From Polychytrium aggregatum (lineage: Eukaryota > Chytridiomycota > Chytridiomycetes > Polychytriales), in contig NW_026516253.1 in NCBI RefSeq assembly GCF_025602895.1, forward strand, positions 266,687-330,686: DNA of 64,000 nt, written 5' to 3'. Each line of letters starts with the position of its first letter. Position 1 is the stretch's first letter. The notes under the pieces are model-generated. The model worked only from the letters and a program-made list of their open reading frames with translations. It did no database searches and was not told the origin of the DNA. The position numbers and the translations under genes were made by a program. Shown one piece after another: positions 50,633 through 55,702 of this stretch.

Positions 50633-53600
50633 ATGGAAGTACCAGACTCGCCGCCGTCGCACGATCAAGCCATGGTCGCACTAGGTGAGGGTCGCTACAT
50701 GCGAAACACAAAGGTCTCGAACTGGAGCTTGGGTTGTTACCTGGGGACCGTTGTGTGCTAGGGGGTGTCGCTGGACGAGGGGAAACGGCATTGGGATGTT
50801 GGGATGGCTGTGGCTTGGGCAAGTTGGTGTAACGGTTATTCCGCCCGGTTTGTCATGTGATCGTGTACTCACCATGTGATCCATTCACACGTGATGGTAT
50901 CCACAGAACAAGGTGATTCACACGGAACCAGTGAGAACTTACACACCAATGAGATGAACGAGGACCTCTTGGCCTTTGCAGAGTTTCTTCAAAAACACCA
51001 CTTGGTCAAATACAAGCAGCTCCTCATAGACAATGACTACGACACCATCGACTCGGTATGTACCCCTGATATTGAGGATGTGGTTGTTGGCCATATTCTA
51101 ATTCAATTTACAAGACAGATTCTGCGGATGTCCGAGGATGAGATGAAGGGGATTGACCTCAAGCCTGGTGCAATCAACAAGATCAAGAATGCCAAGGCGG
51201 ATTATGAGAACTCTCGAGGCAAAGACGAGAAGAAGCCAAACGCAACAAAACGCGAGATCCAACAGCCCCAGCGAGTCTTGCAGCCAGAGGAGTACTATCC
51301 GGCAGTACCCACACAACATTGGGAGTGTCAAAGCCATTATGAAGAGCACCATGTTTTCATCAGGTTCGTGGTTTCTCGGCCCAAACTGTGCGATTCCATT
51401 CCATCCAATTAACGCCTGTTCCCACAGTTACCGAGTCCGTAGTGACGCCAGCAATGCCACGACTCTGCATGGAACCCTCGCTGTCACTCCGCGAGGCCAA
51501 ATGGCACTTCATCCCTATCTCGACAGTCTCTGTCTCTGTGACGGCATGCCCTGGGAACAAGGTTTCATCAACGGTCTCTATCGATCCAACGTGATTGTCC
51601 TGATCCTCTCTGAGGCTGGACTCGAGCAGACCTACAACGCTCAGAACTTCAAGGACAACCAGTTTCTCGAGGTAAGTGCGTCTGAATGCATATAACTGGA
51701 TTGTATTTGGAAACTCACCTATCCTGTGAATGCAGATCCAACATGCTCTCAAGAGAATGAAGGATGGTGAGAAGAGTGGACAATCTGTCATCATCCAGCC
51801 CATCTTCATGTGGTCCACCAGAGAGATTGATGGCGAGACATTCCAGAAGAAGTACTTCCCGCCCATCAAAGAGCTCCCCGACTACACTCCGATCCATGAG
51901 AAGAGTCCGTTGTTCAACAACAAACCAATGTCGATCCGTGAAACCTTTACTGAGTTGATGAAGCTACAGGCCCTCGATGCTGCGGATGGAAACGCTCTCA
52001 AGAGGTGAGATCATCAAATTCACAAGTGAAACGGTTGATACAATCTCACACTATTGATATTCCACAGACTGGTCCCCAATATTCGTGAGCTCATAACAAA
52101 GACTTCCATTGCCGACAAGCAAGGCGATGTGTACACACAAGGCGGTAGTGTCGTCCTCACCGCCGAACAAGACCACGCCTTGCGATCCCTCCTCGACCCT
52201 GTCGACTCCTCTTCCGACAGAAGGGCACTCGAGGATCTGTATGTCGAGGGTACTCGCCAGTGGCTGTTTGACCAAACCACCGACTGGGTCAACCAAGACA
52301 CCACCGACACTGTCCTGTGGGTCAATGCCGTTGCTGGTGTGGGCAAATCTGTCGCTGCCGCCCAGATCGCCAACATCCTCACAGCCACCAACCAGCTGGT
52401 GTCGGCGCTGTTCCTCAAGTACAACGACACCCGCAAGAGCGATCCACGAGTGGTGCTCAACACCATCGCATATGGACTGTGCAAGTGGCACTCGCCGATC
52501 GGCCGCAAGCTGCTCGATGCTGGCCACTCCAAGGACGACCTCGACAAGATGAGCATCCCTGATCTGTTCAAGGCCGTGATTGCCGATCCACTCGAAGCCA
52601 TCGGCAATTACAGACCCAAGGGATCGGTGATGATCCTGGTGGATGCACTCGACGAGTGCTCTACGCGCGACCAGCTGCTCAGTCTGCTTGCCTGGCGGTT
52701 CGTCGAACTGAACAAGACCCGTCCATGGCTCAAGTTGCTGCTGACATCCCGTCCCGAAGAGGACATCAAGGCAGCATTCGATGGAGTCCCGACCAAGACA
52801 ATCGAGCCCTCGAGCGAGGAGAACATCCGCGACCTCGAGGTGTTCATCCGCCACCGACTGCGAGTGTATGACACTCTCACTGACTCGGACCGCACCGAGG
52901 CAGTCGCCATCTTGCTGGACCAGTCCAAGACATTCGTGTGGATTAACCTGATCCTCAACACCGTCGATGCAGCAGCCATGGACGGCCCAGTGACACTCGC
53001 CACGATCAAGGACATCAACGACAGCGCCGCCGATGTCGGGCAGCTGTACCACAAGACATTTGCCAAGATCCACTCGCAGTCGAGCCACCCGGCCGAGCTG
53101 GTCACGGTGGTGTCGGCGATCGCCACGGCCCAGTCGATCCTGACCCCGCAGATCATCGCCGATGTGTTTGGACTCGAGATCGGCGTCGTTTGCGAGTGTC
53201 TCAAGAGCCTCAGCCTGGTCCTCGATCCTGGTGCCAATGGACTGGGTCCCCGAGGCAGCCAGTCCACCAACACCGAGGTCAAGTTCAACCACAAGTCGGT
53301 GGCGGACTATCTCCTCGGCGATGCATCGACTGGCCATCCATGGCATGTGTCGGACTCGTTCCACACGGTGTTTGCCAAGGGATGTCTCGGAGTGATCCTC
53401 TCGCACGAGCCAGTGATCAACATCTGCGATATCTACGAGTTCCACGACGATATCCCCGACCTCGAGGACAGGGTCGCAGCCAAGATCACACCGTCGCTGC
53501 GATACAGCGTCGCCCACTGGATCACACACTTTGTGTGGTGTGTGGACGAAGTGGCCGAGTCGAGTCTGGTGTGGCAGTCGACCGAGATGGTCGATGTGGC

Positions 53601-55702
53601 AGCGGTGCTCACTCGGTTCGTCAAGACGCATGTGTTCTTCTGGCTCGAGTGTGGGTCGCTCACACATCGTATTCAGGAGATTGCCGAGCAACTGTCTGTG
53701 CTCCGAGGAGTGGTCGCCAAGGCACCCAGCACCATCGTCGACGACACCACGAAGGAACTGGTCAAGGACACGTATCGATTCATCCGCGAGTTTGCAGATC
53801 CAATCATTGCGAGTGCACCGCAGGTGTACAACTCGGGGTATGCATTCACACCGAAGGAGACGGCGATCTACAAGACATATGCCGATCAACTCGAGGACAA
53901 GATCCCGTTCCTGGTCACGGCTGGTCCAGCACCCACCTGGGATCCGTGTGAGATGACACTTGCTGGTCACACAGATTCTGTGACCTCTCTGGCGATCTCA
54001 CCCGATGGCAAGTGGATTGTCTCTGGCTCTAGTGACAACACCATCAAGGTGTGGGATGCCACCACAGGCCAGGTGAAGCACACTCTCGAGGGACACACAA
54101 GCTGGGTGGAATCCGTGGCGATCGCACCCGATGGCAAGTGGATTGTCTCTGGCTCTCTGGACAAGACCATCAAGGTGTGGGATGCCACGACTGGCCAGTT
54201 GAAGCACACCCTCAAGGGACACACACACCGTGTTTGGTCTGTGGCGATCTCACCCGATGGCAAGTGGATTGTCTCTGGCTCTGACGACAACACTGTCAAA
54301 GTGTGGGATGCCACCACGGGCCAGGTGAAGCACACCCTCGAGGGACACACATATAGTGTGAACTCCGTGGCGATCTCACCCGATGGCAAGTGGATTGTCT
54401 CTGGCTCTGGGGACAAGACCATCAAGGTGTGGGATGCCACCACAGGCCAGGTGAAGCACACCCTCGAGGGACACGCAGGCTGTGTGGAATCCGTGGCGAT
54501 CTCACCCGATGGCAAGTGGATTGTCTCTGGCTCTAAGGACGAGACCATCAAGGTGTGGGATGCCACCACAGGCCAGCTGAAGCACACCCTCGAGGGACAC
54601 ACATGGTATGTGACCTCCGTGGCGATCTCACCCGATGGCAAGTGGATTGCCTCTGGTTCTCGTGACAATACCATCAAGGTGTGGGATGCCACCACAGGCC
54701 AGTTGAAACACACTCTCGAGGGACACACAAACTATGTGAACTCCGTGGCGATCTCACCCGATGGCAAGTGGATTGTCTCTGGCTACGCTGATGGGACTAT
54801 CAAAGTGTGGGATGCGACCACGAGCCAGCTAAAACACACCCTTGAAGGACACAAGAGTGGTGTACACTCTGTGGCGATCTCACCCGATGGCAAGTGGATT
54901 GTCTCTGGCTCTGGATCATATGATTCCACAGACAACACCGTCAAGGTGTGGGATGCCACCACTGGCCAGTTGAAGCACACCCTCGAGGGACACACAAGAA
55001 GTGTGAACTCTGTGGCGATCTCACCCGATGGCAAGTGGATTGCCTCTGGATCGGAAGACAAGACCATCAAGGTGTGGCATGCCGCCACTGGCCAGCTGAA
55101 GCACACCCTCAAGGGACACACAAACCCTGTGACCTCCGTAGTGATCTCATCTGATGGCAACTCAATTTTTTCTCGAGAGGGAATGCCAAGCTACAACCAA
55201 ATCCTCTGGGTCCGTCGCGGTGACGAGTGGGTTCGCTCCGACGAGTATCCCTCCAGCTTTACCACCGCATCCAACCCACATGCATCGTCCCAGTGGACCC
55301 AAATCGACAACGCTCCCCAATGGATCTGCCATGGCATCCACATCACCAAGGTCCCACACTCCCTCTTTGGCAATCGGAAGTTCACTCTCCCATCCGGCGG
55401 GGCTGCTATTTTGACCCGTGAAACACCCCACCGCCCAGTCATCATCCTGGTAAGTCCAGCCACTTGTCATCACTCCTCCAGTCCCTCAACTAACCCTCCT
55501 ACCACCACAGCCAATCTACCTCAACACCCCAGAGATCCGAGCCGAGGTTGGAAACTATCTCAGCAACTCACCTGATCCCGAGCGTCAAGCCCGTGGTGCA
55601 AACATCCTTTCGAGTCCCGAAGTGATCGCCTTCCACGAAGAGCAAGCCAAATTGGCTGAAGAGCGAGCCCGAATTGCAGAAGAAGCACGACTCGCCGTGT
55701 AG
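50633..55702 (+). CDS. SAM-TIR-NACHT-WD40 receptor (NLR/STAND type), 7 exons, about 1510 aa, 3' end truncated by B5
   Basis: Exons: 50633-50684, 50907-51055, 51119-51363, 51428-51671, 51736-52004, 52068-55449, 55511-55702; all introns GT..AG and five of six are 61-64 bp, with phases that join exactly. Residues 37-95 form a SAM domain (LLAFAEFLQKHHLVKYKQLL, LKPGAINKIKNA). Residues 145-310 form a TIR domain: HHVFISYRVRSD made across intron 3, WEQGFINGLYRSNVIVLILSEAGL, and FLE-IQHAL with Glu230 at the usual NADase catalytic place. The NACHT-type NTPase has Walker A AGVGKS (about 409-414), Walker B ILVDALDEC (about 508-517) and LLTSRPEED. Ten WD40 units run from residue 951. The tail (PIYLNTPEIRAEVGNYL..EEQAKLAEERARIAEEARLA) is helical. 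The final GTG TAG is made by the B5 LTR, so the natural C-terminus is lost. By family, a ligand-triggered sensor whose TIR is the output; the role is inferred. Confidence 0.85.
53959..55172 (+). repeat. 126-bp WD40-coding tandem repeat inside the receptor gene
   Basis: Nine full 42-codon units and a partial tenth. Unit 8 has a 5-codon insertion (GSYDSTD). Units are nearly identical in DNA (for example GATGGCAAGTGGATTG in each) and differ mainly at the residues after L-E-G-H-T and after S-G-S, which are surface positions on a propeller. Confidence 0.93.

What the first reader, a model, noticed from the sequence alone, without database searches (positions are those of the whole stretch)
50633..55702. 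A SAM-TIR-NACHT-WD40 receptor in a fungus-like genome
Joining seven exons at GT..AG sites yields one continuous protein with four recognisable modules: SAM, TIR, NACHT-type NTPase with Walker A and B, and a WD40 sensor. Seen directly: the TIR box FISYR is created only by splicing intron 3 (AG|T), which argues strongly for the model. Known: fungal NLR-like proteins usually have HET, HeLo, Goodbye or phosphorylase N-termini, TIR is uncommon, and SAM plus TIR recalls SARM1. Inference: an early-diverging lineage may use NAD-cleaving TIR receptors in nonself recognition or programmed death, in a combination I do not know as a described class.
Basis: partly seen in the sequence, partly recalled or inferred. 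Interest (0 to 1): 0.88.

Follow-up and report, generated by a model that had tools for sequence, protein, structure and literature searches.

The report
SARM1-like immune receptor family in chytrid

Summary
In detail: seven exons give one 1510-aa SAM-TIR-NACHT-WD40 protein. Introns 3-5 keep GT..AG in 9 of 9 divergent paralogs tested, and Chytriomyces proteins align across the junctions. Single-sequence TIR evidence is weak (Pfam 19.3 bits, cut-off 28; no PDB hit), but a family profile finds SARM1/TIR-1 first in the PDB (19 of 26 hits, best 1.6e-5), aligning E230 with SARM1's Glu.

Correction: the stop codon lies in a Ty3 LTR starting at 55698; an otherwise identical copy without it reads on 22 codons.

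The gene is one of many: 85 of 90 nearly full-length NACHT hits have this TIR exon upstream, 3 more a Pfam TIR (duplicates not collapsed). TIR and NACHT modules diverge differently and partly conflict in trees. WD40 repeats vary at positions selected in Podospora HNWD.

Best reading: TIR-type NLR repertoire of a chytrid. TIR in chytrid NLRs was mentioned before; I found no description of this SAM-TIR class, its dominance or modular evolution. NADase activity is untested.

The parts
50633..50684 (+). exon 1 (17 aa, predicted start; uncertain)
   Evidence: open and joined at GT-AG, but found only in near-identical copies (3 of 20 loci)
50907..51055 (+). exon 2, first half of SAM
51119..51363 (+). 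exon 3, second half of SAM, linker and start of TIR box 1
51428..51671 (+). exon 4, TIR core; ends with the conserved Glu codon (E230)
51736..52004 (+). exon 5, rest of TIR and linker
52068..55449 (+). exon 6, NACHT-type NTPase (NPHP3_N; GVGKS and LVDALDE) and WD40 repeats
52188..52247 (+). module junction: 60-bp bin in which identity to six of nine paralogs jumps, about 20 residues before NPHP3_N
53965..55162 (+). about ten WD40 repeats (end approximate), eight of exactly 42 aa with mean pairwise identity 0.81, variable at unit positions 4, 5, 7, 23, 25
55511..55697 (+). exon 7, host-derived part of the C-terminus
55698..64000 (+). Ty3-type LTR element and part of a second one sharing its LTR, cut by the contig end; supplies the stop codon 55700-55702
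44886..50352 (-). Ty3-type element 280 bp upstream of the ATG, with 5-bp target duplication GCAAT on both sides

Best explanation
The gene encodes a TIR-class NLR (STAND NTPase) of a chytrid fungus. Inferred mechanism: the WD40 part binds a variable ligand; binding lets the NACHT NTPase exchange nucleotide and oligomerise in the manner of Apaf-1; the SAM helps to cluster the N-termini; the clustered SARM1-like TIRs are thereby activated and cleave NAD+ or make a nucleotide signal, leading to regulated death or arrest of the cell. Shown by tools: gene structure, domain order, family size, conservation of the Glu, lower synonymous divergence of the NACHT core than of the TIR, and WD40 variability at recognition positions. 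Inferred: ligand, oligomerisation, NADase activity, cell death. The copy in the window is an insertion allele (or an assembly variant) whose last 22 residues are replaced by one residue and a stop from a Ty3 LTR.
For: splicing conserved in paralogs; SAM, TIR, NPHP3_N, WD40; same order of domains in separately annotated proteins of Chytriomyces hyalinus and Chytriomyces sp. MP71; SARM1/TIR-1 are the best and 19 of 26 PDB hits; SAM; TIR in 20 of 20 fetched loci, SAM in 19 of 20; Glu in 19 of 20; modules diverge at different rates, partly conflicting trees; WD40 positions as in HNWD; 77, 81 (88 of 90 nearly full-length NACHT hits have a TIR upstream); 97 (full-length Apaf-1 at ranks 2 and 3 for the NACHT-WD40 exon).
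Against: The window's TIR alone is below Pfam's cut-off and has 0 hits in the PDB by single-sequence search up to E 10. The residue four before the Glu (W71 in PMC7075850's numbering) is Asn in 6 of 6 aligned TIRs and in 20 of 20 loci, and of the three BB-loop residues that paper names as important for catalysis only the Gly is kept. L039 has Gly in place of the Glu. High internal conservation of the WD40 repeats (0.81-0.86) holds for the window, its copy L021 and L022; in the other loci with two or more exact repeats it is 0.40-0.67, or 0.83 on three repeats in L023. Variable WD40 positions were chosen, and WD40 loops in general vary more than the core. The Apaf-1 match is loose as a whole (TM 0.30, rmsd 30). 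No transcript, biochemistry or phenotype.
Confidence: 0.78

Rival explanations
1. Same architecture, but the TIR is a non-enzymatic adaptor that signals by TIR-TIR assembly to a partner protein.
For: Trp at E-4 replaced by Asn and two of three SARM1 BB-loop catalytic residues absent; one paralog lacks the Glu; the Glu also occurs in TIRs without reported enzymatic activity (PMC7075850, passage).
Against: The Glu is kept in 19 of 20 loci although exon-4 dS is 0.80-1.35 against divergent paralogs.
Confidence: 0.25
2. The window copy is a dead relic: two Ty3 insertions flank and truncate it, so this copy itself has no function.
For: An LTR at 55698 supplies the stop and a second element lies 280 bp upstream of the ATG.
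Against: Frame and splice sites are intact for 1509 residues; an otherwise identical copy without the insertions exists on C72; family exons are under purifying selection.
Confidence: 0.3
3. Two neighbouring genes, SAM-TIR and NACHT-WD40, wrongly joined.
For: Identity to six of nine paralogs jumps at about 52188, inside exon 6.
Against: The exon 5/6 splice sites are conserved in 9 of 9 paralogs tested; three Chytriomyces proteins have both parts in one chain; a TIR lies upstream on the same strand in 88 of 90 cases.
Confidence: 0.03
4. A WD40-STAND protein with a housekeeping or developmental role, not a recognition receptor.
For: No functional data (no call bears on function directly).
Against: Large family with position-specific repeat variation and module conflict; repeat exchange and selection at such positions are published for the Podospora recognition NLRs (PMC1805685, PMC2873952, passages).
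Confidence: 0.1

Closest known systems
SARM1 / TIR-1 (animal NADase)
   Same: SAM before TIR; best PDB matches of the TIR profile, with the Glu aligned; some relatives have two SAMs (L024-L027; P0002)
   Different: No ARM match here, and NACHT and WD40 follow the TIR; Trp at E-4 and two of three BB-loop catalytic residues not kept
Podospora HNWD genes (het-d, het-e, het-r)
   Same: NACHT plus WD40 repeats; variable positions at the same spacing (5, 7, 23, 25 here; 7, 9, 25, 27 there); high internal conservation in the window copy and L022
   Different: HNWD has a HET domain; here SAM-TIR, and the NTPase matches NPHP3_N much better than PF05729
TIR-NBD-WD40 proteins of plants and bacteria
   Same: TIR N-terminal to an NBD and LRR, WD40 or TPR repeats (review PMC9153377, passages)
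   Different: SAM present; fungal
TIR-bearing NLRs of Chytridiomycota mentioned in PMC9815663 (citing Daskalov et al. 2020, not read)
   Same: TIR on a chytrid NLR
   Different: Architecture not given in the passage read; may or may not be the same family
Apaf-1
   Same: NBD followed by WD40 propellers; full-length Apaf-1 at Foldseek ranks 2-3 (TM 0.30)
   Different: CARD (recalled) instead of SAM-TIR

Membership tests
NLR / STAND NTPase of fungi | NACHT-type P-loop NTPase with Walker A and B | tested here: met
   NPHP3_N 9e-29; GVGKS and LVDALDE in the translation; PF05729 NACHT only 0.0089, below cut-off
NLR / STAND NTPase of fungi | C-terminal superstructure-forming repeats | tested here: met
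   WD40 in 10 stretches; repeated strands in the AF2 model, pLDDT 72.3, pTM 0.49
NLR / STAND NTPase of fungi | N-terminal effector or signalling domain in the same protein | tested here: met
   no transcript
TIR domain | profile match over the curated cut-off | tested here: inconclusive
   window 19.3 of 28 bits; of four relatives P0001 29.0, P0002 28.1 and P0008 45.8 pass, P0003 24.2 fails; family profile to SARM1 1.6e-5
NADase TIR | catalytic Glu in the alpha-C region | tested here: met
   E230, aligned with SARM1's; present in 19 of 20 loci
NADase TIR | Trp four residues before the Glu, as in SARM1 | tested here: not met
   Asn (N226)
NADase TIR | NAD+ cleavage | not testable with these tools
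   needs an enzyme assay
SARM1 | ARM and/or multiple SAM with a C-terminal TIR | tested here: not met
   one SAM and no ARM match in the N-terminal pieces at E 1; TIR is not C-terminal
HNWD | HET domain at the N-terminus | tested here: not met
   SAM and TIR instead; no HET match at E 1
HNWD | WD40 repeats of high internal conservation with variability at fixed surface codons | tested here: met
   window 0.81, L022 0.86, variable at 4, 5, 7, 23, 25 against PMC1805685; other loci are less conserved internally
Heterokaryon incompatibility gene | allelic incompatibility with cell death | not testable with these tools
   no population or genetic data

The most novel reading that the evidence does not exclude
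Chytrids run a whole NLR repertoire on one SARM1-like SAM-TIR executor: nearly every NACHT gene of this genome is a TIR-NLR, the SAM-TIR module and the NACHT-WD40 module are exchanged between loci at a fixed junction, and the WD40 array varies at the same surface codons as in Podospora. SAM-TIR as a death module would then predate animals, with SARM1 and chytrid NLRs as two descendants.
Probability: 0.22. Interest if true: 0.85.

Novelty: new variant of a known kind. Interest (0 to 1): 0.66.

Why it matters
A 2014 survey reported no NLR hits in chytrids and linked NLRs to multicellularity (PMC4986451, passages). Here a chytrid genome has 90 nearly full-length NACHT hits (duplicates not collapsed), 88 of them with a TIR upstream. 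That gives a direct place to test whether fungi use SARM1-like TIR NADases in cell death, where HET domains are only remote TIR relatives, and whether SAM-TIR is an old opisthokont module. It also points to HNWD-like WD40 variation outside the Dikarya and to modular evolution of receptor heads and cores.

Tried and rejected
Single-sequence TIR against the PDB: 0 hits up to E 10. NCBIfam: nothing for the TIR piece. PADLOC: the window's TIR matched only a ThsB model (0.0013); 5 of 6 TIRs matched PDC-S66, best 5.5e-7; not pursued. Homolog search with a short SAM-TIR alignment: 4283 candidates, none at 0.001, so no free-standing SAM-TIR relative of that length was found; the TIR-only region search gave P0008 alone among 331 candidates. 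The C146 locus, where TIR and NACHT hits lie in one listed 1604-aa open frame, looked like proof of a single ORF; reading it showed the frame open by chance through an intron and exon 5 in the wrong frame, so I do not use it. The L031/L035/L038 TIR clade is not rejected by NACHT data (AU p 0.074), so tree conflict rests on L022/L023 (p 5e-7) and L032/L036 (p 0.023); these groups were named after seeing the distances. SAM_2 gave 7 hits in the genome, none at a NACHT hit; I put that down to SAM being split by an intron here. One search listed no paper with Chytriomyces hyalinus among 20. AF2 was not submitted for the spliced SAM-TIR, because the tool states that it takes sequences that the window's DNA gives letter for letter; only exon 6 was modelled. 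In one search I set the start one base off and corrected it.

Rows dropped: pair distances and trees used the window plus 11 of 20 fetched loci (left out: L021, identical; L024, broken frame; L026, L027, L029, L034, L037, L039, L040, near-duplicates by their scores); one search used 12 of 20, junctions 9 of 20. 20 of the 39 other main DNA matches were fetched. One search was given 90 of the 106 NACHT rows (16 partial ones left out) and 97 of the 123 TIR rows (the 94 over 50 bits and 3 weaker); one of the 85 pairs rests on a weak TIR hit (27.4 bits).
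Full report
Gene structure. Without RNA, the best test is comparison. A TIR profile built from the window and public relatives finds TIR in 20 of 20, split over three exons; the SAM profile finds SAM in 19 of 20, split over two (L030 has none; the first half in L033 is weak, 8.2 bits). In 9 of 9 divergent loci examined, introns 3, 4 and 5 begin with GT and end with AG at the aligned place, although the identity of these introns has fallen to 39-61% in the ten divergent loci. 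Exon 4 is 244 nt in 11 of 12 loci and 241 in L024; its dN/dS against the ten divergent loci is 0.14-0.31. The 17-aa exon 1 occurs only in near-identical copies (3 of 20); the true start may be in exon 2.

The 3' end. An inverted pair of identical arms flanks the gene. These are Ty3-type elements: LTRs start at 55698 and end at 50352. The predicted stop at 55700-55702 is inside the right LTR. Contig C72 carries the same gene, 100% identical over 50353-55697, and the same 5' flank (window 42596-44880, 100%), without either element, and reads on 22 codons to its own stop. The left insertion has a 5-bp target duplication, GCAAT, and is real by that sign; the right one runs off the contig end (the window ends with contig C366), so its far side cannot be seen and a misjoin is possible. 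The two copies show no difference in about 7.6 kb, so they may be alleles or an assembly duplicate.

Domains. SAM_2 2.2e-7; TIR_2 0.0017 (19.3 bits, cut-off 28); NPHP3_N 9e-29; PF05729 NACHT 0.0089; WD40 2.8e-133 in ten stretches. The TIR is weak as a single sequence: 0 PDB hits. In relatives TIR_2 passes the cut-off in 3 of 4 tested. A profile of six TIR sequences, from the window and four relatives, has 26 PDB hits up to E 1; the 19 best are SARM1 or TIR-1, best E 1.6e-5, with the window's E230 aligned to the Glu of SARM1 (the residue number 642 is recalled). The Glu is kept in 19 of 20 loci; L039 has Gly. The ligand-binding Trp of SARM1 four residues earlier (W71 in PMC7075850; passages, section 35) is Asn here, and of the BB-loop residues named there only Gly is kept. 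Activity is therefore open. An AlphaFold2 model of exon 6 (pLDDT 72.3, pTM 0.49, nine sequences) has an NTPase-like part of helices and strands followed by repeated strands; Foldseek ranks a repetitive propeller first and full-length Apaf-1 second and third (TM 0.30, rmsd about 30, so the overall match is loose).

Relatives and organism. The search over residues 30-500 gave 10 proteins: two of Chytriomyces hyalinus and two of Chytriomyces sp. MP71 (41-58% identity over 34-98% of the region), three unnamed JGI proteins that lack the TIR, Quaeritorhiza haematococci (34% over 40%), and two distant ones (an unnamed ENA protein and Serendipita vermifera, a basidiomycete by recall, 28-29% over about a quarter). 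P0001, P0002 and P0003 align from SAM through NACHT to the start of WD40, where the piece given ended, with small gaps only. P0002 has two SAM matches, as do loci L024-L027. The named close relatives are Chytridiomycota, so the genome (64.7 Mb) is taken as a chytrid; its name is not given.

Family. NPHP3_N has 106 hits in the genome, 90 of them nearly full length. The window's TIR exon 4 has 123 hits at 0.001. In 85 of the 90, a TIR exon lies within 2.5 kb upstream on the same strand (one by a weak hit of 27.4 bits); 3 of the remaining 5 have a PF13676 hit there. Ten TIR hits over 50 bits have no nearly full-length NACHT partner. Duplicate contigs were not collapsed, so the number of distinct genes is lower; the searches score only the best candidates, so the counts of hits are lower bounds.

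Modular evolution. Among 66 pairs of 12 sequences, 59 have a TIR synonymous difference above 0.3; their medians are 0.64 for TIR and 0.15 for NACHT (range 0.085-0.185). The reverse also occurs: L035 and L038 differ by 0.008 in TIR and 0.132 in NACHT. Identity jumps from 53-75% to 85-95% at about 52188 in six of nine loci, some 20 residues before NPHP3_N; in the other three (L025, L028, L030) the rise is from 75-83% to 81-95%. Over all 66 pairs the two measures still correlate (Spearman 0.49), so the modules are not fully independent. Trees: TIR joins L022 and L023 (95/91), NACHT joins the window with L022 (100/100) and rejects L022+L023 (AU p 5e-7); NACHT joins L032+L036 (100/100), TIR rejects it (p 0.023); the L031/L035/L038 TIR clade is not rejected by NACHT (p 0.074). 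Recombination or gene conversion between modules is the simplest reading; stronger protein constraint on NACHT would not by itself lower its synonymous differences.

WD40 sensor. The window has eight exact 42-aa repeats, mean identity 0.81. Unit positions 4, 5, 7, 23 and 25, chosen, carry 125 nonsynonymous and 4 synonymous pair differences; all other positions 95 and 156. L022 has 152/5 against 118/93, L031 121/6 against 362/291, L023 8/0 against 14/12 (pairs are not independent). Positions 5, 7, 23, 25 flank the conserved V6 and D24 as codons 7, 9, 25, 27 flank 8 and 26 in Podospora HNWD (PMC1805685, passages). Among the 12 proteins with at least five exact repeats (near-duplicate loci included), the four positions are more variable than random ones in each (permutation p 1e-5 to 0.04), Chytriomyces hyalinus P0001 and P0004 included (1.4e-4 and 1e-5); position 25 ranks only 7th to 11th in P0001, P0004, L025, L036 and L039. 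Loops of any WD40 vary more than cores, which this test does not remove. Internal conservation is high in the window, L021 and L022 and lower in most other loci.

Literature. A 2014 survey found no NLRs in chytrids (PMC4986451, passages). PMC9815663 (sections 8 and 17 and passages) says that TIR was reported in NLRs of Chytridiomycota, citing among others a book chapter that I did not read, describes TIR-like N-termini in Pezizomycotina, and reports a SAM family at NLR N-termini. [quoted passage not shown] PMC12881547 and PMC9153377 (passages) speak of fungal TIR relatives as HET. Searches for SAM-TIR with fungi and NLR (0 papers), TIR domain with Chytridiomycota and NLR (1 paper, PMC9815663), and the listings showed me no description of this architecture in the open-licence library; apart from the papers named here and in the notes (PMC7075850, PMC11291939, PMC12222747, PMC2873952, PMC1805685: passages, one section of the first) I saw listings only, and subscription papers were not searchable.

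Verdict.

Noticed in passing
window 7258-17882, 30747-36213, 44886-50352, 55698-64000: Ty3-type elements with identical LTRs 5158 bp apart, together about 30 of the 64 kb; at 7258-17882 and from 55698 on, neighbouring copies share an LTR. Recent amplification or assembly of arrays.
   Followed up: partly
window 26350-27140: Long minisatellite open in several frames on both strands (VPIDSLCAGQT / CVPGKPYRSIA).
   Followed up: no
window 22189-23622 (-) and 42471-43892 (-): Two open frames of 477 and 473 aa that share a stretch beginning MSSQATKRITRSMSTRAAKRQRLHEQL, paralogous genes of unknown function.
   Followed up: no
L039 (C66:26234-36224): Family member with the TIR Glu replaced by Gly (DNQLLG).
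   Followed up: partly
L024-L027: Members with two SAM domains in tandem; L024 also has a broken frame in the NACHT exon.
   Followed up: partly
P0001 (Chytriomyces hyalinus): The annotated protein carries a second SAM-TIR at its C-terminus, probably the start of a tandem neighbour gene fused in annotation.
   Followed up: no
G000, TIR class at 71.3 bits: 14 nearly full-length NACHT hits have an upstream TIR exon with the same score while their NACHT scores range from 95.2 to 99.3; suggests spread or homogenisation of one TIR exon.
   Followed up: partly
P0008 (Quaeritorhiza haematococci): TIR-NACHT-WD40 with a long unrelated N-terminal region; highest TIR_2 score of the four relatives tested (45.8 bits).
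   Followed up: no
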